From Conchocele bisecta (lineage: Eukaryota > Mollusca > Bivalvia > Lucinida > Thyasiridae), in contig CM055266.1 of the NCBI GenBank assembly GCA_029237695.1, forward strand, positions 123,122,569 to 123,186,568: DNA of 64,000 nt, in the 5' to 3' direction. Each line of letters begins with the position of its first letter. The stretch's first letter is position 1. Positions 1,878-51,624 of this stretch are shown here, one piece after another. The translations under genes and the position numbers were made by a program. The notes under the pieces are model-generated. The model did not search any database, was not told the origin of the DNA, and worked only from the letters and a program-made list of their open reading frames with translations.

Positions 1878-2100
1878 ATACCAGATTAAATCATAACGAA
1901 TGTTCAATTATGTTTAGTGCACAAACATAGATTCGTACGGAGCCCCGCGAAATAACAGTTCGTTCCCTCATTCCCTCAATTTAACAATTCGTTCCTACGA
2001 ATTAACAATTCGTTCCCTCGAATTTACAATTCGTTCCCACGAAATGACAATTCGTTCCCTTAATTTAACAATTTGTTCCCTCGAATTAACAATTCGTTCA

Positions 2101-2770
2101 GTAGCGTTACGGTCCCTATGGGGGCACTCTGGTAACATGGTCCGAATAGGGGCACTAAAATGGTCCAAATAGGGGCACTTCTGTACATCTTCTCTATCAT
2201 ACAAGATGCGACTGGTGGTAACATTACTGGGCCATATAGGGGCACTCGGGTAACATGGTCCGTATAGGGGCACTGAAATTGTCCAAATAGGGGCACTTTT
2301 GTATAATCTTCTATATCATACAAGATGAGACTGGTGGTAACGTTACTGGGCCATATAGGGGCACTCGGGTAACATGGTCCGTATAGGGGCACTGAAATGG
2401 TCCAAATAGGGGCACTTCTGTATAATCTTCTATATCATATATACAAGATGCGACTGGTGGTAACGTTACTGGGCCATATAGGGGCACTCGGGTAACATGG
2501 TCCGTATAGGGGCACTGAAATGGTCCAAATAGGGGCACTTCTGTATAATCTTCTATATCATATATACAAGATGCGACTGGTGGTAACGTTACTGGGCCAT
2601 ATAGGGGCACTCGGGTAACATGGTCCGTATAGGGGCACTGAAATGGTCCAAATAGGGGCACTTCTGTATAGTCTTCTATATCATACAAGATGCGACTGGT
2701 GGTAACGTTACTGGTCCCTATGGGGGCACTCGGGTAACATGGTCCGTATAGGGCCACTAAAATGGTCCAA
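2101..2770. repeat. GGGGCAC minisatellite, about 118-124 bp unit
   Basis: Between five and six direct copies begin near 2101 and recur at about 2214, 2332, 2456, 2579 and 2698, judged by the marker GACTGGTGGTAACGTTACTG. Each unit holds three ATAGGGGCAC motifs. Units near 123 bp preserve a reading frame, which is why a 148-codon minus-strand ORF appears here; it is not considered a gene. Confidence 0.85.
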
Positions 2771-2771
2771 A

Positions 2772-2935
2772 TACTTTGAACAGATAGCTGTTCCCCTGTA
2801 TGTATGCGTCATGTCGGAGCAAACGTATGTAGTGATTTAATGACATTGTCTACATACTTTGAATATATAGCTGTTCCCCTGTATGTATGCGTCATGTCGG
2901 AACAAACGTGTCTAATTATTTAATGACTTGTTCAC
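2772..2935. repeat. 83-bp tandem duplication
   Basis: The segment containing ATAGCTGTTCCCCTGTATGT and GCGTCATGTCGG occurs twice in direct orientation, at about 2772-2850 and 2855-2935, in the spacer of the D element. Confidence 0.75.
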
Positions 2936-2945
2936 ATGCATGCAC

Positions 2946-3082
2946 TTCGTTACCACCAGTCGCATCTTGTATGATATAGAAGATGTACAGAAGTGCCCCT
3001 ATTTGGACCATTTCAGTGCCCCTATGCGGACCATGTTACCCGAGTGCCCCTATATGGCACAGTAACGTTACCACCAGTCGCA
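2946..3082. repeat. inverted minisatellite unit
   Basis: This is one complete unit of the 2101-2770 array in reverse orientation (AGTGCCCCTATTTGGACC, then GGTTACC-type linkers). With a second inverted piece at 3457-3546 it makes the D element an imperfect palindrome. Confidence 0.8.
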
Positions 3083-3167
3083 CCTTATAAAGTATCTAAA
3101 TATCATACAAACAGGTGCCAGTATGCGTCACATATAACACAGTATAAATATGATACAGTTGTCTTGG

Positions 3168-3440
3168 ACTGGGCTGTTACGCAGGCTGATCTGGGACTAC
3201 GCTGGTGACAAATGCCGTCAGGTCCTTCCTTCATAATTGTTGGTACACATACAATGGTTCCCTTATATACTACTTAGTGTTATGCCACTCGATGAGAGGC
3301 TTTACATGACGTGTCGCACTAGTACTTTGAGGCAGGCTGATCTGGGACTACAATGGTGACACATGTCGTAAGATACTTTTTTCACCTGTTGTAGCACATA
3401 CAATGGTTCCTGTATATACTTATCAGTGTTATATATCGAT
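3168..3440. repeat. tandem duplication in D element spacer
   Basis: Two diverged direct copies start GCAGGCTGATCTGGGACTAC at about 3180 and 3333 and both continue into ACACATACAATGGTTCC and a TCAGTGTTAT-like end. Confidence 0.65.
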
Positions 3441-3456
3441 GTAAGCCTTTAAAATA

Positions 3457-3546
3457 CATGTTTATAAGTGCCCCTATTTGGACCATTTTAGTGCCCCTAT
3501 ACGGACCATGTTACCCGAGTGCCCCAAAAGGGACCGTAACGCTACC
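3457..3546. repeat. inverted minisatellite unit next to right D arm
   Basis: It carries AGTGCCCCTATTTGGACC and ACCATGTTACCCGAGTGCCC, the reverse of the left array, directly joined to the ACAATTCGTTC units of the right arm. Confidence 0.75.
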
Positions 3547-3982
3547 AACCCCTCTCAATTCGTTCGTTCGTTCCTACGATATAACAATTCGTTCTCACGA
3601 ATTAACAATTCGTTCCCGTGGGAACGAATTGTTATTTCGTGGGAACGAATTGTTAAATTGAGGGAACGAATTGTTATTTCGTGGGAATAAATTAATACAA
3701 AAATAATTCTACGTCCCCTGCAGGGCTCCGTAGATTCGTATTTTTAAGCTGTACTGAGCAAATGTTTTTTTATTGTGCGATCTTATTGGCGTATGTATAA
3801 TTGATATGCATTAATATGAGTTTTACTACACTGTGTTATAGCATGTATATGATTACCGAAAACATGTTCGTTGCTAATGAAATCAGTGAACGCATATATA
3901 CATTTTTGCAAGATTGGTATGTAAGCTTTTAGTTTAGATAACATTTCCAAAATGGCCAAAATACAAGATGGCCATCAATATT

Positions 3983-9995: not shown

Positions 9996-10258
9996 TACGG
10001 AGCCCCGCGACAATTCGGTCCCTCAATTTAACAATTTGTTCCCTCGAATTAACAATTCGTTCCCACGATATAGCAATACGTTCTACGAATTAACAATATT
10101 TCGTGGGAACGAATTGTTAAATTGAGGGAACGAATTATTAATTCGTGGGAACCAATTGTTAATTCGTCGGAACGAATTGTTAAATCGAGGGAATGAATTG
10201 TTATTTCGTGGGAATAAATTGATAAAAAACAAAATCTACATCCCCTGCGGGGCTCCGT
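9996..10258. mobile_element. family D fold-back, short form
   Basis: Inverted TACGGAGCCCCGCGA and CTGCGGGGCTCCGT enclose runs of ACAATTCGTTCCC-type units facing each other. It lacks the minisatellite found in the 1.9-3.7 kb copy. The flanks CATATG and CATTGG match only partly as a target duplication. Confidence 0.7.
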
Positions 10259-14670: not shown

Positions 14671-15836
14671 CACAGGTGGAAGACTCGGACCTATGACACC
14701 AAAAAAATGCCTATTAAAAAAAATCCCATTACCCCACCCACTTGGTCTCGTACATTACCATCTTCTATTTATAGAAGTTGGGTATAAATATGACTATTAT
14801 AGAAGAAAGAGCCCTCTCTTTTCCGATTCGCACAAACACAATAAACATCGATTAAATGTATGAAATATGTCTCTGGCAATCGATAAAGGTCTTAGGTGTG
14901 TGAATATACTCACTTCAAATCGCTGTTTCAAGTATTTATTGAGTTATTCGCGTTGATTACCCCATCCAAAGCGAAAGTTGCGTGTACGAAAGAATCTCAC
15001 ACAGAATCGGAGGCCGTCCGGCGTGGATTATCGGTTATATTTGGCCGATAGCTGATCGCCAGCTCAAACTAAAGTGGTGCACCATGACCATATACATTAG
15101 AAACTCCAACCATAAAAAGTTCGTCCAATTGTGATCGTTCACCGATCTAAAAAACTATTTTTTGTCTAATTTCGTTCATTATCTGGAACTGGGGTCAATG
15201 CACCATCTTCCATAATACAACCGGAAGAGTCTATGTAAAGAACATCTCTGATTGGCTAAATCTAAACTGTAATGACGTCATTCAACCTATTTCGGGATCC
15301 CGGAAGACATAATCTGATAGTACGCGAATCATGAATGAAAGTAGAAAAAAGGTGTTTTTTAGATCTGTGAACGATCACAATTGGACGAACTTTGTATGGT
15401 TGGAGTTGCTAATGTATATGGTCATGGTGCACCACTTTAGTTTGAGCTGGCGATCAGTTATTGGTCAAATATGACCGATAATCCACGCCGGACGGCCTCC
15501 GATTCTGTGTGAGATTCTTTCATACACGCTAATTTCGCTTTGGATGAGGTATACAAAATGCGAATAACTGAATAAATGCTGGAAAGAGCGATTTGAAGTG
15601 AATATATTCACACACCTAATACCTTTATCGATTGCCAGCGACAGAAATCATACATTTAATCGATGTGTATTGTGTTTGTGCGAGTCGGAAACGAGAGGGC
15701 TCTTTCTATAATGGCCACAATGTTATCCACCTTTCTTTATATAAGATGGTAATGTACGAGACAAAGTGGGTGGGGTAATGGGATTTTTTTTAATAGGCAT
15801 TTTTTTGGTGTCATAGGTCCGAGTCTTCCACCTGTG
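14671..15836. mobile_element. family J 1.17-kb fold-back, complete
   Basis: Two arms of about 480 bp start CACAGGTGGAAGACTCGGAC and end with its complement; a unique loop lies at about 15155-15365. The element is flanked by the exact 8-bp direct repeat GTTGTGAC (14663-14670, 15837-15844). The outer flank continues TGGAG, so it inserted into the left terminus of the A element at 15837-16036. Eight-bp duplications are typical of hAT and related superfamilies; assignment is tentative because no transposase is present. Confidence 0.9.
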
Positions 15837-17719: not shown

Positions 17720-17888
17720 GATGGATTTACACTTATTGAGCATAGGCTGCATATGCAGCATATGCTCAATAAATGTAAATCCGGTAATTGTTTACAAGAA
17801 AACAGTGTTAATGTGAAATTTACAAACTATCATAATTTTGCACTTACGATCATTTTAGTCGTACGAAGTTTAGTGAAACGGCCCCCTG
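17720..17888. mobile_element. family B half-element with complete hairpin
   Basis: The copy starts at the stem of the hairpin (TGGATTTACACTTATTGAGC, loop at GCATATGCAGCATATGC) and then continues through one arm to GTTTAGTGAAACGGCCCCC. The outer left arm is absent and the join is with the end of the P element. Confidence 0.8.
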
Positions 17889-24718: not shown

Positions 24719-24748
24719 ACTCATAAACGCATTTTCTTCTAGTAACCA
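24719..24748. mobile_element. family E fragment
   Basis: CATAAACGCATTTTCTTCTA and GTAACCA match the left hairpin arm of family E, cut off by the B element that follows. Confidence 0.55.
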
Positions 24749-24943
24749 GGGGCCCGTTTCACTAAACTTCGTACGACTAAAATGTTCGTAAGTGCAAAAT
24801 TATGATAGTCTGTAAATTTCACATTAACAATGTGTTCTTGTAAATAATCATTGGATTTACATTTAATGAGCATAGGCTGCATATGCACTTAATTTGCTAA
24901 ATTTCCTAAATTTGCACTTCCGAAGTTTAGTGAAACGGGCCCC
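24749..24943. mobile_element. family B element, internally deleted
   Basis: Both inverted ends are present (GGGGCCCGTTTCACTAAACT and AGTTTAGTGAAACGGGCCCC). The hairpin is reduced to its left arm (GAGCATAGGCTGCATATGC), and most of the right arm is missing. Confidence 0.85.
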
Positions 24944-25059
24944 AGCATGATCAGTGAATCGGGCTGTGTGAAGTTAGCACTGCAATCGCAGATCGACAAT
25001 CAACATTCAAATCGAATGTCGAGTTGAATGTAGAGCTGTAAAGTTAAGATATGTAGAAA

Positions 25060-28000
25060 ACTTGAATGAACAGCTGGCTAGTTCCAATGCGCTGCTGGCT
25101 CTGCAATGGACATTTGTACTTACAGTACAAAATGAATGTACAGCTGGCTAGTGCCAATGTACAGCTGGCTCTGCAATCGACATTCAAACTTGTATTGTCA
25201 GTTCAATCTGAATGTAGCGCTGGGTACTTCCAATGTACAGCTGGCTCTGCAATCGACATTCAAACTCGTATTGTCAGTTCAATCTGAATGTACAGCTGAG
25301 TACTTCCAACGTACAGCTGGCTCTACAATCGACATTCAAACATTTATTTTCGGTTGAATGTGAATGTAGAGCTGGGTACTTCCAATGTACAGCTGGCTCT
25401 GCAATCAACATTCAAACGTATTTTCCGTTGATTCTGAATGTAGAGCTGGGTACTTCCAATGTACAGCTGGCTCTGCAATCGACATTCAAACTTATATTGT
25501 CAGTTCAATCTGAATGTAGAGCTGGATACTTCCAATGTACAGCTGGCTCTGCAATCGACATTCAAACATGTATTTTCCGTTGATTCTGAATGTAGAGCTG
25601 GGTACTTCCAATGTACAGCTGGCTCTGCAATCGACATTGAAACATGTATTGTCCGTTCAATTTGAATGTAGAGCTGGGTATTCCCAATGTACAGCTGGCT
25701 CTGCAATCGACATTCAAACAGTATATCTTCGGTTGAATCTGAATGTAGAGTCTGGGTATTCCCAATGTACAGCTGGCTCATGCAATCGACATTCAACTCG
25801 CATTTTCTGTTCAATCTGAATGTAGAGCTGGGTACTTCCAATGTACAGCTGGCTCTGCAATCGACATTCAAACTTATATTGTCAGTTCAATCTGAATGTA
25901 GAGCTGGATACTTCCAATGTACAGCTGGCTCTGCAATCGACATTCAAACTCGTATTGTCAGTTCAATCTGAAGTAGAGCTGGGTACTTCCAATGTACAGC
26001 TGGTTCTGCAATCGACTTCAAACAGTTATTTTCCGTTGATTCTGAATGTAGAGCTGGGTATTTCCAATGTACAGCTGCTCTGCAATCGACATTCAAACAC
26101 GCATTTTCTGTTTCAATCTGAATGTAGAGAAGCTGGGTACTTCCCAATGTACAGCATTGGCTCTGCAATCGTACATTCAAACTTATATTGTTCAGTTCAA
26201 TCTGAATGTAAGACTGGATACTTTCCAATGTACAGCTGGCTCTGCAATCGACAATTCAAACTCGTATTGTTTCAAAGTTCAATCTGAAAATGTAAGAGCT
26301 GGGTACTATTCCAATGTACACGCTAGGTTCTGCAAATCGACCATTCAAACATGTATTTTCCGTCAGATTCTCAGAATGTAGAAAGCTGGGGTATTTCCAA
26401 TGTACAGCTGGCTCCTGCAATCGGACTAAATAAAGGACCAAAAAAAAGACCAATTCAAACTCCGCATTTTCTGTTCAAATATGAATGTAGAGCTGGGTAC
26501 TTCCAATGTTTACAAGCTGGCTCTGCAATCAGACAGTTCCAAACTTGTTATTGTCAGATTCAATCTGGAATGTAGAAAGCTTGGGTACTTTCCAATGTAA
26601 AACAGCTGGCTCTGCAATCGAACATTCTCAAATTCTCGGTATTGTCAGGTTTCAATCTGAATGTTTAGAGCTGGTACTTCCAATTACAGTACAGCCTTTG
26701 GCTCTGCAATCGACATTCAAACTCGTATTGTCAGTTCCAATCTGAAATGTACAGCTGGGTACTGTTCCAATGTACAGCTGTCTCACCTGCAATCGACATT
26801 CAAACATTTAATTTTTTTCGGTTAAAAAATGTAGGAATGTAGAACTGGGTACTTCCAATTCAACAGCTGGCTCTGCAATCGACAATTCAACATGGTATTT
26901 ATTTCCCGTTGATTCTGGAATGTAGAAGCTGGGTAATTTCCTAATGTACAGCTGGCTCAGCAATCGACATATTCAAACTCGCATTTTCTGTTCAAATCTG
27001 AATCGTAGAGCTGTGGGTACTTTCAATGTACAGCTGGCTCTGCACCTCGACATTCAAACTTGTTGGTTTTGTCAGAATTCCAATCTGAATTTGTAGACAG
27101 GGTAAACTTCCAATGTAAACAGCTGGCTCTGCCCAATAGACATTCTAACTCCGTAATTGTCAGTTCCAATCTGCAATGTATAGCTGGGTACTTCCAATGT
27201 ACATCTGGCTACTACAATCAACAATTCAAAATTCAAACATTTAATTTTACGGTTGAATGTGAATGTAGAGCTGGGTACTTCCAAATGTACAGCTTGCTCT
27301 GCAATCCGCCAATTTCCAAACATTTATTTTTTTCCGCATTGATTCTGAATGTAGAGCTGGGTATTTGCCAATGTACAGCTGGTCTCAGCAATCGACATTC
27401 AAAAACTCGCATTTTCTGTTCAATATGAATGTTTAGAGCTGGGTACTTCCAATGTAACAGCTGGATCAGCAATCGCACATTCCAAACTTGTAATGTTTCA
27501 GTTCAATTCTTGAATGGTAGAAGCTGGGTAACTTCCAATGTACAAAGCTGGCTCTGCAATCGACCTTTCAATCAAACTCGTATTGTCAGTTCAATCTGAA
27601 TGTACAGCTGGGTACTCTTCCAATGTACAAGCTGGCTCCTACAATCGACCATTTCAAACCATTTATTTTTTTCGGTTTGAATGTGAAATGTAGAGCTGGG
27701 TACTTCCAATGTACAAGTCTGGCTCTGCAAATCGACATTTCAAAACTATGTATTAATTTTCCGTTGATTCTGAATGTAAGCTGGGTAACATCCAATTGAA
27801 CAGAGCTGGCACTGCAATCCGACATTGAAACATGTAATTATCCGTTCAAGTTGAATGTAGAGCTGGGTATTCCCAATGTACAGCTGGCTCTGCAATCGAC
27901 ATTCAAACATGTATCTTCGGTTGAATCTGAATGTAGAGCTGGGTATTCCCAATGTACAGCTGGCTCTGCAATCGACATTCAAACTCGCATTTTCTGTTCA

Positions 28001-29262
28001 ATCTGAATGTAGAGCTGGGTACTTCCAATGTACAGCTGGCTCTGCAATCGACATTCAAACTCGTATTGTCAGTTCAATCTGAATGTAGAGCTGGGTACTT
28101 CCAATGTACAGCTGGCTCTACAATCGACATTCAAACATTTATTTTCGGTTGAATGTGAATGTAGAGCTGGGTACTTCCAATGTACAGCTGGCTCTGCAAT
28201 CGACATTCAAACATGTATTTTCCGTTGATTCTGAATGTAGAGCTGGGTATTTCCAATGTACAGCTGGCTCTGCAATCGACAGTGAAACTCGCATTTTCTG
28301 TTGAATATGAATGTAGAGCTGGGTACTTCCAATGTACAGCTGGATCTGCAATCGACATTCAAACATGTAATGTCAGTTCAATCTGAATGTAGAGCTGGGT
28401 ACTTCCAATGTACAGCTGGCTCTGCAATCGACATTGAAACATGTATTGTCCGTTCAATTTGAATATAGAGCTGGGTATTCCTAATCTACTGCTGGCTCTG
28501 CAATCGACATTCAAACATGTATATCTTCGGTTGAATCTGAATGTAGAGCTGGGTATTCCCAATTTACAGCTGGCTCTGCAATCGACATCCAAACTCGCAT
28601 TTTCTGTTCAATCTGAATGTAGAGCTGGGTACTTCCAATGTACAGCTGGATCTACAATCGACATTCAAACATTTATTTTCGGTTGAATGTGAATGTAGAG
28701 CTGGGTACTTCCAATGTACAGCTGGCTCTGCAATCGACATTCAAACATGTATTTTCCGTTGATTCTGAATGTAGAGCTGGGTATTTCCAATGTACAGCTG
28801 GCTCTGCAATCGACATTCAAACATGTATTTTCCGTTGATTCTGAATGTAGAGCTGGGTATTTCCAATGTACAGCTGGCTCTGCAATCGACATTCAAACAT
28901 GTATTTTCCGTTGATTCTGAATGTAGAGGTGGGCACTTCGAATGTACATCTGGCTGTGCAATCGACATTTGAACTCGTATTTTCTGTTCAATCTGAATGT
29001 AGAGCTGGGTACTTCGAATGTACAGTTGGCTCTGCAATCGACATTCAAAATCACATTTTATGCTGAATATGAATGTAGTGCTGGATAGTTCCTATGTACA
29101 GCTGGCTCTGCAATCGACATTCACACATGTATTTTCGAGTGAATCTGAATGTACAGCTGGCTACTTCGAATGTACAGCTGGCTGTGCAATCCACATTTAA
29201 ACTCGTATTTTCTTTTCAATCTGAATGTACAGCTGGGGACTTCGAATGTACAGCTGGCTCTG
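25060..29262 (+). repeat. left 76-bp tandem array, about 55 units
   Basis: A typical unit reads TTCAAACTCGTATTGTCAGT, then TCAATCTGAATGTAGAGCTG, then GGTACTTCCAATGTACAGCT, then GGCTCTGCAATCGACA. It contains two related half-motifs, AATGTAGAGCTGG and AATGTACAGCTGG, 24 bp apart. Variants differ mainly in the first 25 bases. Units between 25970 and 27850 are full of single-base insertions; units on either side are clean. Confidence 0.95.
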
Positions 29263-29710
29263 CGAACTTTGTATGGTTGGAGTCTCTAATGTATATGATC
29301 ATGGTGCACGACTTTAGTTTGAGCTGGCGATCAGCTATCGGCCAAATATGACCGATAATCCAGCCGGACGGCCTCCGATTCTGTGTGAGATTCTTTCGTA
29401 CACGCAACTTTCGCTTTGGATGGGGTAATCAAAACGCGAATAACTCAATAAATACTTGAAACAGCGATTTGAAGTGAGTATATTCACACACCTAATACCT
29501 TTATCGATTGCCAGAGACATATTTCATACATTTAATCGATGTTTATTGTGTTTGTGCGAGCCGGAAAAAAGAGGGCTCTTTCTATAATAGCGCTACTTAT
29601 GCTCACCTTGAATTAACGTATAGTACTGTACGAGACTAAGTGGGTGGGGTAATGGGATTTTTTTTAATAGGCATTTTTTTGGTGTCATAGGTCCGAGTCT
29701 TCCACCTGTG
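29263..29710. mobile_element. family J half-element in the fold-back loop
   Basis: It begins GAACTTTGTATGGTTGGAG, a point close to the loop of the complete J copy, and runs to the terminus GAGTCTTCCACCTGTG. Only the right arm is present. Sequence is close to 15398-15836. Confidence 0.85.
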
Positions 29711-29854
29711 GGACCGACATAGCCTTGGACGCGACTTTGAAAAACGACTTTTAAACAACTTATGCTGCTTTATCTGTAAAAGGCAGTTCATTTTGCCGCA
29801 AAAAGGGCACGCGAGAGCTGAATAACGATCTCGGAGCCAGCTCGTTATTCATAC
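29711..29854. other. remaining loop sequence of the giant fold-back
   Basis: Unique sequence at first; from about 29815 degenerate relatives of the 76-bp unit appear (GAGCCAGCTCGTTATTCA). Confidence 0.5.
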
Positions 29855-32780
29855 GTGCCAGCTCTGTATTCAGAATATACAGAAAACATAGTACTGAATA
29901 ACGATCTCAGACCCAGCTCGGTATTCAAACTACCCAGCACTGTATTCAAACACACCTGTTTAAATGTCGACTACACAGCCAACTGTACATTCGAAGTAAC
30001 CAGCTCTACATTCAGATTGAACAGAAAATGTCGATTGCAGAGCCAGCTGTACATTGGAAATACCCAGCTCCACATTCAGAATCAACGGAAAATATATATT
30101 TGAATGTCGATTGCAGAGCCAGCTGTACATTGGAAATACCCAGCTCTACATTCAGATTCAACCGAAAATACATGTTTGAATGTCGATTGCAGAGCAGCTC
30201 TACATTGGGAATACACAGCTCTACATTCAGATTGAACCGACAATACATGTGTGAATGTCGATTGCAGAGCCAGCTGTACATTGGAAGTACCCAGCTCTAC
30301 ATTCAGATTGAACTGACAATACGAGTTTGAATGTCGATTGCAGAGCCAGCTGTACATTGGAAGTACCCAGCTCTAAATTCAGATTGAACAGAAAATGCGA
30401 GTTTGAATGTCGATTGCAGAGCCAGCAGTACATTGGAAATACCCAGCTCCACATTCAGAATCAACGGAAAATATATATTTGAATGTCGATTGCAGAGCCA
30501 GCTGTACATTGGAAATACCCAGCTCTACATTCAGATTCAACCGCAAATACATGTTTGAATGTCGATTGCAGAGCCAGCTCTACATTGGTAATACACAGCT
30601 CTACATTCAGATTGAACCGACAATACATGTGTGAATGTCGATTGCAGAGCCAGCTGTACATTGGAAGTACCGAGCTCTACATTCAGAATCAATGGAACAT
30701 ACAGTTTTGAATGTCGATTGCAGAGCCAAGCTGTACATTGAAAGTACCCACTCTACATTCAGATCAACCGAAACTAAATGTTTGAATGTTCGATTGCAGA
30801 GCCGAGCTGTACATTGGAAGTACCCAGCTGTACATTCGGATTGAACTGACAATACGAAGTTTAATGTCGATTGCAGAGCCAGCTGTACATTGGAAGTACC
30901 CAGCTCTACATTCAGATTGAATTGACAATACAAGTTTTGAATGTCGATTGCAGAGCCAGCTGTACATTTGGGAAGTACCCAGCTCTACATTCATATTGAA
31001 CAGAAAATGCGAGTTTGAATGTCGATTGCAGATCCAGCTTGTACATTGGAAGTATCCAGCTCTAACATTCACATTCAACCGAAAATAAATGAATGTCGAT
31101 TGTAAGAGCCAGCTGTACATTGGAAGTACCCACTCTACATTCAGATTGAACTGACAATACGAGTTTGAATGTCGATTGCGAGCCAGCTGTATCATTGAAG
31201 AATACCCAGCTCTACATTCATATTGAACTGACAACACAAGTTTGAATGTCGATTGCAGAGCCAGCTTTACATTGAAAGTACCCCAGCTCTACATTCAAAT
31301 CAATGGAACATACATGTTTGAATTCGATTGCAGAGCCAGCAGTACATTGAAAGTACCCAGCTCTACATTCAGATTTCACCGAAACTAAATGTTTGAATGT
31401 CGATTGCAGAGCCAGCTGTACATTGGAAGTACCCAGCTGTACATTCAGATTGAACTGACAATACGAGTTTGAATGTCGATTGCAGAGCCAGCTGTACATT
31501 GGGAAGTACCCAGCTCTACATTCAGATTGAATTGACATACAAGTTTTGAAATGTCGATTGCAGAGCCAGCTTGTTTACATTTGGAAGTACCCAGCTCTAC
31601 ATTCATATTGAACAGAAAATGCGAGTTTGAATGTCGATTGCAGAGCCAGCTGTACATTGGAAGTATCCAGCTCTATATTCACATTCAAACCGAAATAAAT
31701 GTTGAATGTCGATTGTAGAGCCAGCTGTACATTGGATGTACCCAGCTTTTACATTCAGATTGAACTGACAATACGAGTTTGAATGTCGATTGCAGAGCCA
31801 GCTGTACACTGGAAGTACCCAGCTCTACATACAGATTGAACTGACATACAAGTTTTGAATGTCGATTTGCAGAGCCAGCTGTACATTGGAATACCCGCTC
31901 TACTTCATATTGAACAGAAAATTCGAGTTTGAATGTCGATTGCAGAGCCAGCTGTACATTGGAAATACCCAGCTCTACATTCAGAATCAACGGAAAATAC
32001 ATGTTTGAATGTCGATTGCAGAGCCAGCTGTACATTGGAAGTACCCAGCTCTACATTCAGATTGAACTGACAATACGAGTTTGAATGTCGATTGCAGAGC
32101 CAGCTGTACATTGGAAGTATCCAGCTCTACATTCAGATTGAACTGACAATATAAGTTTGAATGTCGATTGCAGAGCCAGCTGTACATTGGGAATACCCAG
32201 CTCTACATTCAGATTCAACCGAAGATATACATGTTTGAATGTCGATTGCAGAGCCAGCTGTACATTGGGATACCCAGCTCTACATTCAAATTGAACGGAC
32301 AATACATGTTTCAATGTCGATTGCAGAGCCAGCTGTACATTGGAAGTACCCAGCTCTACATTCAGAATCAACCGAAAATACATGTTTGAATGTCGATTGC
32401 AGAGCCAGCTGTACATTGGAAGTACCCAGCTCTACATTCACATTCAACCGAAAATAAATGTTTGAATGTCGATTGTAGAGCCATCTGTACATTGGAAGTA
32501 CCCAGCTGTACATTCAGATTGAACTGACAATACGAGTTTGAATGTCGATTGCAGAGCCAGCTGTACATTGGAAGTACCCAGCTCTACATTCAGATTGAAC
32601 TGACAATACGAGTTTGAATGTCGATTGCAGAGCCAGCTGTACATTGGCACTAGCCAGCTGTACATTCACTTTGTACTGTAAGTACAAATGTCCATTGCAG
32701 AGCCAGCAGCGCATTGGAACTAGCCAGCTGTTCATTCAAGTTTTCTACATATCATAACTTTACAGCTCTACATTCAACTC
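29855..32780 (-). repeat. right 76-bp tandem array, about 38 units
   Basis: The same repeat in reverse orientation (GATTGCAGAGCCAGCTGTAC, GGAAGTACCCAGCTCTACAT). The order of variant units, read inward from the outer end, follows the left arm with a few whole-unit gaps. Units in 30720-31920 carry many single-base indels, whereas flanking units do not. Confidence 0.95.
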
Positions 32781-32849
32781 GACATTCGATTTGAATGTTG
32801 ATTGTCGATCTGCGATTGCAGTGCTAACTTCACACAGCCAGTGAATCGG

Positions 32850-45451: not shown

Positions 45452-46845
45452 AAGAACGGGGTCAAAACTAAACTTACAGGTGCAGCTATAAATATATACA
45501 GCTGCACCTGTAAAAATACAATTTTGTTTTGACCCCGTTCGTACACCATATGTACGAACGGTGTCAAAACTAAACTTACAGGTGCAGCTATAAAAATATA
45601 CAGGTGCACCTGTAAATGTATAGCTGCACCTGTAAAATGTACAGCTGCAGCTTTAAATGTATAGTTGCAGCTGTATAGCTGCAGCTATATATGGTGTACA
45701 AACGGGGTCAAAACTAAATTTACAGGTGCAGCTATAAAAATATACAGGTGCACCTGTAAATATACAGGTGCAGCTGTAGAAAATACAGGTGCACCTGTAA
45801 AAAATGCAGCTACACCTGTAAAAATACAATTTAGTTTTGACCCCGTTCGTACACAATATGTACCAACGGGGTCAAAACTAAAGTTACAGGTGCAGCTGTA
45901 AAAAATACAGCTGCACCTGTAAAAATACAGCTGCACCTGTAAAAATACAATTTTGTTTTGACCCCGTTCGTACACCATATGTACGAACGGTGTCAAAACT
46001 AAACTTACAGGTGCAGCTATAAAAATATACAGGTGCACCTGTAAATGTATAGCTGCACCTGTAAAATGTACAGCTGCAGCTTTAAATGTATAGTTGCAGC
46101 TGTATTTTTTATAGCTGCAGCTATATATGGTGTACAAACGGGGTCAAAACTAAATTTACAGGTGCAGCTATAAAAATATACAGGTGCACCTGTAAATATA
46201 CAGGTGCAGCTGTAGAAAATACAGGTGCACCTGTAAAAAATGCAGCTACACCTGTAAAAATACAATTTAGTTTTGACCCCGTTCGTACACAATATGTACC
46301 AACGGGGTCAAAACTAAAGTTACAGGTGCAGCTATAAAAATATACAGGTGCACCTGCATTTTTACAGCTGCACCTGTAAATGTATAGCTGTATCTGTAAA
46401 AGGTACAGCTGCACCTGTAAATGTATAGCTGCACCTGTAAAAGGTACAGCTGCAGCTGTAAATGTATAGCTGCACCTGTAAAAGGTACAGCTGCACCTGT
46501 AAATGTATAGCTGCACCTGTAAATGTATAGCTGCACCTGTAAAAGGTACAGCTGCAGCTGTAAATGTATAGCTGCAGCTGTATTTTTATAGCTGAAGCTA
46601 TAAACGTATTTTACAGGTGCAGCTATACATTTACAGGTGCAGCTGTAAAAAATGCAGGTGCACCTATATATGTTTATAGATGCACCTGTAAGTTTAGTTT
46701 TGACCCCGTTGGTACATATTGTGTACGAACGGGGTCAAAACTAAATTGTATTTTTAAAGGTGCAGCTGTATTTTTTACAGCTGCACCTGTATATTTACAG
46801 CTGCACCTGTATTTTTTATAGCTGCACCTGCAAATTTACAGGGTA
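45452..46845. repeat. palindromic CAGCTG/CAGGTG array with GGGGTCAAAAC modules
   Basis: Blocks of GCAGCTGnnnnnTATA and ACAGGTGCACCTGTAAA alternate in both orientations and are punctuated by hairpins of TTTTGACCCCGTTCGTAC and its complement. A 427-bp block (about 45547-45973) recurs directly at about 45974-46330. The end section 46330-46600 has a shorter TGCACCTGTAAATGTATAGC repeat. ORFs up to 150 codons here are in-frame repeat readings. Confidence 0.9.
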
Positions 46846-47020: not shown

Positions 47021-47358
47021 CGAATCGTTCCGTCAATTTAACAATTCGTTCCCAGGAATTAACAATTTGTTCCCTCAATTTAATAATTAGTTCCCACCAA
47101 CGCACAATTCGTTTCCACGGGAACGAATTGTTAATTCGTGGGAACGAATTGTTAGTTATATTGTGGGAACGAATTGATAATTCGAGGGAATGAATTGTTA
47201 AATCGAGGGAACGAATCGTCATTTCGTGAGAACGAATTGTTAATTCGAGGGAACGAATTGTTATATCGTGGGAACGAATTGTTTATTCGAGGGAATGATT
47301 TGTTAAATTGAGGGAACGAATTAATAAAAAGAAATCCATGTCACCTGCGGGGCTCCGC
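47021..47358. mobile_element. family D element, left end decayed
   Basis: Facing runs of ACAATTCGTTCCC and GGGAACGAATTGTTAATTCG units end in CACCTGCGGGGCTCCG at right. The left TACGGAGCC terminus is no longer recognisable. Confidence 0.7.
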
Positions 47359-48543: not shown

Positions 48544-48681
48544 CAATAACTTATAATACAGAGGAAAGTATCCATTTGGGATATAAAATAGCGGCTGTTA
48601 CAGAGAGAGACCAAGCGACCGCCAGATCTTGACAATGAGGGACCCCAGGTATTTTAGGTGAAAGCTTCGCAGCAGAGGGAG

Positions 48682-49845
48682 ATGGTGCCCACTCCAGCCA
48701 GACCTGAACCAACAACTTCAGAAGGCCGCATCACATCATTGGAAGATGCGTTTGTGAAACTGCAGACATGTTTGGAACATTTGATTGTGCTGGCCCGCAA
48801 AAGGGAATTCCATCAGAGGTGCTCCATAAGCAGGAAACCAACTCATACATACATGGAGTGTCCATTGAAAAACAAATGTTTTGCTTGTTTGAAGGAAGGC
48901 CACTTTAAAAGGAATTGTCCAAAGAGCAATGGTAAGAAAATAGGACATTCTCCGGATGGAAAGTCAAAATCTGTTGGAAAAGCTGCGTGTGCCGAATGGT
49001 TAGTTGATCCAATGATGGATACGTCTACACCAAGTCTGATACCGAGTTTGGGTACCAAGTACTCGGACTCGTATGTGTGCACTAAGTGCGGAAAGGTGGC
49101 ACTAGCCCCCAGTAGAGATGTGGAGATGATTGAAAACATTGATGCCACACTGAATAGTAGTGGGGCCACTTTGTATCCATCTAAGATGGGTGTGCGTGAA
49201 CAGTCGATGAGTCAATCGCCTAGTGGAAGTAGAAAACCTGAAATGGATGTCGGTCCGATTTGCCCGAAGGTTGATGAATCACCAAGTGACTTAGGATCTC
49301 AGGTTGGAGATGGTGATAGGAACAGGGTTCCGATTGAAGTGGAAATCCAAGATTCCACAAGGAAGGAAAACTTGTGTCCTGTAGCATGCAAGGTAGGTAT
49401 GTATCCAAATGCAAGCGGGGAGAATGTGCGTAGCGAACACATTTGTCCCGGTTTTGTCAAGGAGGAACATGTACGTCATGAACATGCGTTCCAAGGTAGG
49501 GACAAGGATCACGTGCGTAGCGAACACGTGTTTCCGGTTGCTTGCGGGTTGGAGCATGTAATAGCATGCAAGGAGCAAACATTTTCCGGGGTGTCATCAG
49601 AGGGGCAAGCTTACCGTGTTTGCTCACCTGGTGGCGAGCGTGGAATGGATTTCACAAATGAGACGGATGAGGGCAAGGACGTCGGTGTTGCCAGTGAGAG
49701 TCCCGGTGCTGAATCCGGCGAGACAATGAAGGCCAAGCAACCAGAGGTACGGGCAAGGATGGAACTGGACGAGCCTGGTCTCGATGTGATCTGGCCGTGG
49801 GATCCAGGAGGGTGTAATGACCTTGGTGAGGGAGTTCCGTGTTGA
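48682..49845 (+). CDS. Gag-like zinc-knuckle protein of an LTR-type retrotransposon remnant
   Basis: From the first ATG the frame encodes 387 residues; it is open for eight further codons upstream to a stop, so the original N-terminus may be lost. Near residue 65 lies a CCHC zinc knuckle, CFACLKEGHFKRNC (C-x2-C-x4-H-x4-C), the nucleic-acid-binding motif of retroelement Gag proteins. A second cysteine pair, CTKCGK, follows near residue 130. The C-terminal half is acidic and contains irregular repeats of a VRSEHnFP-type motif (residues about 250-300). No typical capsid region is identifiable. The frame is intact for 1.16 kb, in contrast to the broken integrase just downstream. A domesticated zinc-knuckle gene is an alternative. 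Confidence 0.65.
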   Translation: MVPTPARPEPTTSEGRITSLEDAFVKLQTCLEHLIVLARKREFHQRCSISRKPTHTYMECPLKNKCFACLKEGHFKRNCPKSNGKKIGHSPDGKSKSVGKAACAEWLVDPMMDTSTPSLIPSLGTKYSDSYVCTKCGKVALAPSRDVEMIENIDATLNSSGATLYPSKMGVREQSMSQSPSGSRKPEMDVGPICPKVDESPSDLGSQVGDGDRNRVPIEVEIQDSTRKENLCPVACKVGMYPNASGENVRSEHICPGFVKEEHVRHEHAFQGRDKDHVRSEHVFPVACGLEHVIACKEQTFSGVSSEGQAYRVCSPGGERGMDFTNETDEGKDVGVASESPGAESGETMKAKQPEVRARMELDEPGLDVIWPWDPGGCNDLGEGVPC

Positions 49846-51332: not shown

Positions 51333-51363
51333 CCATTAGTGACACATTGCGCAGCCACTGACC

Positions 51364-51616
51364 ACAGGTCGAAGACTCGGACCTATGACACCAAAAAAAT
51401 GCCTATTAAAATAATCCCATTACCCCACCCACTTGGTCTCGTACAGTACCATTTAAATGCCTATTAAAATAATCCCATTACCCCACCCACTTGGTCACGT
51501 ACAGTACCATCTTCTATATAGAAGATGGTACTGTACGAGACCAAGTTGGTGGGGTAGTGTGATTCTTTTAATAGGCATTTTTTGTTGGTGTCATAGATCC
51601 TAGTCTTCCACCTGTG
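51364..51616. mobile_element. family J short fold-back
   Basis: Ends CACAGGTCGAAGACTCGG and GTCTTCCACCTGTG; only the outer 110 bp of each arm remain, and the left arm contains a tandem duplication of TGCCTATTAAAATAATCCCA. Flanks CCACTGAC and CTACTGAC match at 7 of 8 positions. Confidence 0.8.
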
Positions 51617-51624
51617 CTACTGAC

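What the first reader, a model, noticed from the sequence alone, without database searches (positions are those of the whole stretch)
24952..32849. A 7.9-kb fold-back element whose arms are 76-bp repeat arrays, bounded by an 11-bp target duplication
Exact complementary termini (GCTGTGTGAAGTTAGCACTG), near-identical outer 200 bp, and the direct repeat CAGTGAATCGG immediately outside both ends show that the whole inverted array moved as one unit. Tandem-repeat arms of 3-4 kb are far longer than in most known fold-back elements. Foldback elements of flies have repeat-built arms with 9-bp duplications, and Mutator-like elements have 8-11 bp duplications; neither family name can be fixed here.
Basis: partly seen in the sequence, partly recalled or inferred. 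Interest (0 to 1): 0.88.

Follow-up and report, generated by a model that had tools for sequence, protein, structure and literature searches.

The report
Palindromic foldback transposon with repeat arms
This 7.9-kb stretch is one copy of a dispersed family of non-coding "fold-back" jumping elements whose mirror-image arms are long arrays of a 76-bp repeat, and small letter changes in the duplicated target beside some copies hint at how the elements move.

Summary
The window carries an inverted-repeat element at 24962-32839 (7,878 bp) whose arms are arrays of a 76-bp unit (53 and 36 units). Its 1.89-Gb genome holds 285 copies of the 26-bp end (reversed control 0). The true ends are GGCTGTG...CACAGCC, so the target-site duplication is 9 bp (AGTGAATCG), not 11. 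Of 49 end pairs, 21 have exact 9-bp duplications, 17 match at 6-8 of 9, 11 at fewer. Copies share the order of repeat variants from the tips inward, so the palindrome appears to move as one unit. The window copy's centre is a piece of a hAT-like element plus family sequence; no transposase was seen. About 1.7 kb of the left arm looks like unpolished long-read sequence. It is a large member of the known foldback kind; MULE membership is untested.

Unexpected: in 23 of 24 mismatched duplication bases (one indel locus set aside) one copy reads as the element's own terminal AGCC, five bases away from the element; with copies swapped, 1 fits. An IS256-like same-strand joining step could produce this. 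That mechanism is inferred, and polarity rests on one locus.

The parts
24962..32839 (.). Whole fold-back element, 7,878 bp; no open frame of 120 aa or more outside repeat sequence
   Evidence: Perfect inverted termini; terminal G/C shared by other copies; frames
24953..24961 (+). Left 9-bp target-site duplication AGTGAATCG
   Evidence: 9 is the only length giving exact duplications across copies beyond one 4-bp and one 5-bp match
32840..32848 (+). Right 9-bp target-site duplication AGTGAATCG
24962..25132 (+). Left end: about 100 bp of non-array terminal sequence plus one divergent unit; 285 genome copies of its 26-bp tip
25063..29263 (+). Left arm: 53 units of a 76-bp repeat
26119..27851 (+). 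Insertion-rich stretch of the left arm (units 14-33), probably unpolished long-read sequence
   Evidence: 218 insertions and 5 deletions over 1,520 consensus positions against 4 and 6 over 988 in units 1-13
29263..29711 (-). Fragment of one arm and one terminus of a different, hAT-like palindromic element (whole copy at 14671-15836)
   Evidence: 92.5% and 89.2% identity to the two arms of that element
29712..30026 (.). Remnant of the family's own inner module, present in inverted pairs in at least 15 of the 29 other loci
   Evidence: core positions 447-764 match other copies, mostly at 94-99%, one at 90% (output partly cut)
30027..32738 (-). Right arm: 36 units of the 76-bp repeat, inverted
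32668..32839 (-). Right end, inverted copy of the left end

Best explanation
It is one copy of a recently active, non-autonomous fold-back DNA transposon family. A transposase made elsewhere recognises the ends, cuts out or copies the whole palindrome and joins it to a target with a 9-nt stagger; gap filling leaves a 9-bp duplication. The 76-bp arrays travel with the element and grow and shrink by unequal exchange in blocks of several units. The window copy then took a hAT-like insertion in its centre and lost one side of its inner modules. Shown: the unit, its ends, the 9-bp duplications, the dispersed copies, the shared unit order. Inferred: trans mobilisation, the way the arrays change, the order of events in the centre, and that the transposase is Mutator-like (MULE/Foldback type).
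For: 285 ends with at most 2 mismatches in 26 bp, against 0 for the reversed control, with listed places on contigs C1-C17. Exact 9-bp duplications in 16 of 40 pairs and near ones (6-8 of 9) in 15 of 40. In the first 24 pairs, 16 match at 7 or more of 9, against 4 of 552 cross-pairings, and no length from 5 to 8 or 10 to 14 gives an exact match. A further 9 pairs gave 5 exact, 2 at 8 of 9, and 2 at 5 and 2 of 9. Arm order is mirrored more than in any of 200 permutations (score 0.888, permutation maximum 0.732). Copies at different loci share tip-inward unit order. The 46 ends of 23 copies lie 0-3.5% from their consensus.
Against: No transposase with these ends was established. 11 of 49 pairs have no recognisable duplication. 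The first copies fetched came from the best-scoring 40 of 1,033 candidates, so their ends look younger than average. The grouping of copies into lineages was read by eye from unit strings; the alignment check timed out. Ends of one copy are not significantly more alike than ends of different copies.
Confidence: 0.85

Rival explanations
1. The family is moved by a DDE_Tnp_4 (IS5/PHIS-type) transposase rather than a Mutator-like one.
For: A 14.4-kb copy on C7 (19657085-19671529) with an 8-of-9 duplication carries a DDE_Tnp_4 reading frame near its centre (E 7e-9 and 1e-7 for its two pieces) and a 76-bp array 3.2 kb in from its left end.
Against: The frame has a stop codon. The sampled 70 bases 3.5 kb in from the right end match no array. 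A nested insertion is just as likely. I recall 2-3 bp duplications for that superfamily, which would not fit 9.
Confidence: 0.12
2. It is the terminal array of a Polinton-like element, with the DNA polymerase of L019 as the coding part.
For: Locus L019 has a family end and 2.2 kb of array beside a reading frame matching DNA_pol_B_2 (E 5e-9); the frame has 888 relatives in the protein search.
Against: Bases 1-7497 of L019 match nothing in the window or the 28 other loci compared at E 1e-5. Polintons make 6-bp duplications (recalled), not 9. A terminal-looking palindrome sits at the junction, as in a nested insertion.
Confidence: 0.04
3. It is satellite DNA or an assembly inversion, not a transposon.
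For: The arms are tandem repeats, and part of the left arm is poorly polished.
Against: Matching 9-mers, at 6 or more of 9, beside 38 of 49 end pairs.
Confidence: 0.02
4. The AGCC pattern in imperfect duplications is a polishing or chance effect.
For: The assembly has visible errors in these repeats; the rule was formed after seeing most of the data; 20 unpaired ends show no clear excess of C at step 4 (4 of 20) or step 3 (2 of 20); polarity rests on one locus where one of five repeat units disagrees.
Against: 21 of 22 mismatches fit with one indel locus set aside (22 of 25 with it), swapped control 1 of 22 and 2 of 25. Two further mismatches, predicted beforehand, both fit. The five bases next to the element, where read overhang errors should fall, are not the ones changed under the rule.
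Confidence: 0.2

Closest known systems
Tm1, Mutator/Foldback family of root-knot nematodes (PMC3169594, passages seen)
   Same: Composite inverted repeats built of a variable number of short tandem repeats; mostly 9-bp duplications; transposase-less relatives
   Different: Tm1 repeats are 13-15 bp and the copies in the passages I saw are about 1-2.6 kb; here the unit is 76 bp and 24 measured copies are 2.9-10.2 kb. Tm1 has a Phantom-type transposase; none is tied to this family
Tetris foldback of Drosophila virilis (PMC4079207, passages seen)
   Same: Non-coding; tandem repeats inside the inverted repeats (about 220 bp); 8-10 bp duplications; no autonomous copy found
   Different: Three structurally complete copies were found there; Tetris has a middle domain, whereas in copy L010 here inner modules face each other directly
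Galileo (P superfamily) of Drosophila (PMC3573991, passages seen)
   Same: Long, internally repetitive inverted repeats with length change by tandem repeats; chimeric copies without matching duplications
   Different: 7-bp flanking duplications and inverted repeats up to about 1.26 kb; here 9 bp and arrays of 2.7 and 4.2 kb in the window copy
Rehavkus (PMC6446971, table and passages seen)
   Same: 9-bp duplication and a minisatellite inside the element
   Different: Minisatellite near one end and a transposase with a PHD finger; no such transposase was searched for here
IS256/ISCth4 copy-out elements (PMC7780238, passages seen)
   Same: Transposases related to Mutator; A/T-rich 8-bp duplications; one end joins the flank a few nt outside the other end, giving an end-spacer-end junction
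   Different: Bacterial; direct biochemical evidence there, only flank changes here

Membership tests
Foldback elements (structural class) | Long inverted repeats made of direct repeats | tested here: met
Foldback elements (structural class) | Target-site duplication at mobile copies | tested here: met
   9 bp; 21 exact of 49 pairs
Mutator-like (MULE) superfamily | 8-11 bp duplication | tested here: met
   9 bp; range from PMC6446971
Mutator-like (MULE) superfamily | MULE transposase between the same ends | not tested
   The PF10551 search of the genome did not complete
P superfamily (Galileo) | 7-bp duplication | tested here: not met
   no exact 7-bp duplication in 24 or 15 pairs
hAT superfamily | 8-bp duplication (recalled) | tested here: not met
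   no exact 8-bp duplication in 24 or 15 pairs
Polinton/Maverick | 6-bp duplication (recalled) | tested here: not met
   no exact 6-bp duplication in 24 or 15 pairs
Polinton/Maverick | Protein-primed DNA polymerase inside the element | tested here: inconclusive
IS256-like copy-out | Circle or dimer junction with a short spacer | not tested
   Pattern search for CAGCC-spacer-GGCTG did not complete

The most novel reading that the evidence does not exclude
In this fold-back family one element end attacks the same strand 5 nt outside the other end, as IS256-type insertion sequences do. Resolving that joint leaves the last 1-3 bases of the element (C, CC, GCC) in place of the matching outer bases of the 9-bp duplication. 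Donor flanks would then keep a readable scar of a copy-out step in an element with Mutator-like duplications. (Odds lowered from 0.20 to 0.17 on rechecking: one of five repeat units at the single polarised locus disagrees.)
Probability: 0.17. Interest if true: 0.85.

Novelty: new variant of a known kind. Interest (0 to 1): 0.6.

Why it matters
Foldback elements are tied to chromosome inversions and to the birth of satellite DNA (PMC4079207 and PMC3573991, passages), and how they transpose is little known. This family offers a genome with 285 ends, so up to about 140 copies, many with exact duplications, in which arm growth can be followed copy by copy. If the flank changes are real, they are a sequence-only record of a strand-transfer step and make copy-out against cut-and-paste testable from ordinary assemblies. 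Such elements are easily lost in repeat surveys: one bivalve survey removed tandem repeats from its libraries (PMC10294476, passages).

Tried and rejected
Deamination of single-stranded target DNA as the cause of imperfect duplications (my first idea). Dropped on polarity: L025 lies in a tandem repeat of about 100 bp. Three neighbouring units read TATTCGTAT as the left copy does and a fourth TATTTGTAT, so the right copy seems to have gained its G; but a fifth, degenerate unit reads TATTGGATA and speaks the other way.

A tight perfect dyad at the element centre: none of 23 copies has a perfect stem of 40 bp or more with a spacer under 40, for centres between 20 and 80% of the length.

Ends of one copy being more alike than ends of different copies: 286 of 2,000 shuffles reach the observed value.

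Unpaired ends as a test of the AGCC rule: no clear excess, counted against the rule.

A coding copy in L032 or L034: no match above a Pfam cut-off among the three frames tried.

Left out of the pair count: 5 of 30 loci, window included (L019, L031, L032, L034, L037), because one end was missing or truncated. The third set of pairs lacks ends preceded by A, whose listing did not complete, unless listed.

Organism: not identified. A bivalve was a guess from memory and is not used.
Full report
WHAT IS THERE. The left arm is a 76-bp array at 25063-29263 (53 units) and the right arm the inverted array at 30027-32738 (36 units). Outside the arrays each arm ends in about 100 bp of non-array sequence that is 99% identical between the two ends.

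QUALITY OF THE SEQUENCE. Units 14-33 of the left arm (26119-27851) carry 218 insertions and 5 deletions over 1,520 consensus positions; units 1-13 carry 4 and 6 over 988. Such insertion-heavy noise is typical of uncorrected long reads (general knowledge), so I treat it as error. Right-arm units 11-26 show a milder excess (24 and 18 over 1,216). The 82-83% arm identity from BLAST is therefore probably an underestimate.

COPIES AND TARGET DUPLICATIONS. A search with the first 249 bp gave 269 matches; the first 40 listed are full-length or nearly full-length ends at 97-100% identity, but only 40 of 1,033 candidates were scored. The 26-bp tip with up to 2 mismatches occurs 150 times forward and 135 reverse, 0 for the reversed control; the first 100 places were listed. 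I fetched 29 other loci; 25 of the 30 loci including the window have both ends, one of them (L021) completed by a later fetch. With 15 more pairs this makes 40 pairs: 16 exact 9-bp duplications, 15 with 6-8 of 9 matching, 9 with fewer. Lengths 5-8 and 10-14 gave no exact duplications in the first 24 pairs (one 4-mer), and lengths 6-8 and 10-13 none in the next 15 (one 5-mer). Cross-pairing flanks of different copies gave 7 or more matches in 4 of 552. A third set of 9 pairs gave 5 exact, 2 at 8 of 9, and 2 at 5 and 2 of 9: in all 21 exact, 17 near and 11 without, of 49.

INTERNAL STRUCTURE. Unit variants follow one another in mirror order in the window's two arms (units 1-47 against 1-27: score 0.888; 200 permutations, mean 0.543, maximum 0.732; reverse order 0.473). 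Written as strings of unit types, arms of many copies begin with a similar order (C c c d b f g e a c b e), and copies appear to fall into lineages that keep both of two different arms: window with L015 and L020; L013 with L014 and L023; L017 with L018 and L035 (read by eye; the alignment check, timed out). In at least 15 of the 29 other loci the centre holds inner modules in both orientations (output partly cut); in L010 they repeat at about 380 bp and face each other without a distinct middle. In the window copy the left modules are missing and a fragment of a hAT-like palindromic element sits there (29263-29711), 92.5% and 89.2% identical to the arms of a whole copy at 14671-15836. That copy is best read with an 8-bp duplication GTTGTGAC; a 6-bp reading, TTGTGA, is also possible. 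A nested insertion followed by a deletion would explain this.

MOBILISATION. The window element has no frame of 120 aa or more outside repeat sequence. Two long copies with 8-of-9 duplications exist on C7 (14.4 kb) and C16 (14.9 kb). A 351-base sample from the C7 copy contains a DDE_Tnp_4 frame with a stop; a sample from C16 is array. Two 70-base samples show array 3.2 kb in from the C7 copy's left end and no match 3.5 kb in from its right end. Whether this gene is the mover or a nested element is open. L019 has a DNA_pol_B_2 frame next to the array. The rest of that side matches nothing in the window or the 28 other loci, and I read it as a nested Polinton-like insertion. Searches of the genome for a MULE transposase did not complete. 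The Mutator-like assignment rests on the 9-bp duplication and on resemblance to Tm1 (PMC3169594) and the MULE range of 8-11 bp (PMC6446971).

THE IMPERFECT DUPLICATIONS. Number the 9 bases of each duplication copy from the outside towards the element (steps 1-9), reading towards the element. Over the 15 imperfect pairs there are 25 mismatched positions; L035 is an indel (3 positions) and is set aside. Of the other 22, 21 fit this rule: one copy has A, G, C or C at steps 1, 2, 3, 4, the element's own terminal four bases; with the two copies swapped only 1 fits. With L035 the figures are 22 of 25 and 2. By step: step 4 to C 12 of 12, step 3 to C 6 of 6, step 2 to G 2 of 2, step 1 to A 1 of 2; step 5 has no mismatch. 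CGCC fits these 22 as well as AGCC does, so step 1 carries little information. The second batch of pairs, fetched before the rule was formed, gives 9 of 10. The rule was written down before the third set was read: its two mismatches, one at step 4 and one at step 1, both fit, swapped 0. Altered flanks mostly carry a run ending at step 4 (C, CC or GCC); L049 (steps 2-3) does not, and L057 is altered at step 1 alone. Polarity is known for one locus only: around L025 three repeat units agree with the left copy in this 9-mer, a fourth has the left copy's base at the site, and a fifth, degenerate unit has the G of the right copy. Twenty unpaired ends show no clear excess of C at steps 3 or 4.

READING OF THAT PATTERN. 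The junction AGCC, five bases, GGCT is what results if the 3' end of one terminus joins the flank five bases outside the other terminus on the same strand. IS256-family elements, whose transposases resemble those of Mutator-like elements, make such joints (PMC7780238, passages). Resolution of such a joint could leave one to three element bases in the donor flank. Rivals are a hairpin between the element end and the flank during gap filling, and an assembly effect. The pattern is small (24 mismatches in all); the mechanism is conjecture. One library search, for imperfect target site duplication with Mutator, transposase, mismatch and gap-repair terms, listed 12 of 327 papers, none of the 12 holding that phrase (listing only).

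VERDICT. A real fold-back transposon family whose best-scoring ends are close to their consensus (0-3.5%). The kind is known; the arm size, the lack of a distinct middle in the copy read in detail (L010) and the flank changes are the unusual parts.

Noticed in passing
14671-15836 and 51361-51618: Palindromic hAT-like elements (ends CACAGGTGGAAGACT; 8-bp duplication GTTGTGAC at the first, 6-bp reading also possible); a piece of the same family sits in the fold-back core.
   Followed up: partly
1968-3693, 10009-10226, 47021-47322: Inverted arrays of a 21-bp unit (TTCGTTCCC..), possibly a second fold-back family; no clear duplication found.
   Followed up: partly
45475-46841: Dense array of 20-41 bp units rich in ACAGCTGCACCTGT in both orientations.
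   Followed up: no
24747-24944: Short palindromic repeat (GGGCCCGTTTCACTAAACTTCG) directly beside the left end, with relatives near 17748, 40015 and 54020.
   Followed up: no
48658-49845: 395-aa open frame with a zinc-knuckle-like Cys/His stretch (recalled resemblance to a gag protein); the Pfam call holding it failed on another entry.
   Followed up: no
L019:3910-5262: DNA_pol_B_2 frame beside a family array, with a terminal-looking palindrome at the junction; probably a nested Polinton-like element.
   Followed up: partly
G000:C7:19657085-19671529: 14.4-kb copy with family ends and a DDE_Tnp_4 frame (one stop codon) near its centre.
   Followed up: partly
G000:C10:14733274-14733824: Two ends 0.55 kb apart with inverted, not direct, flanks (AATGTATTCA and its complement), as from a local inverted duplication.
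   Followed up: no
L025 flanks: Insertion into a tandem repeat of about 100 bp whose units serve as an empty-site reference.
   Followed up: yes
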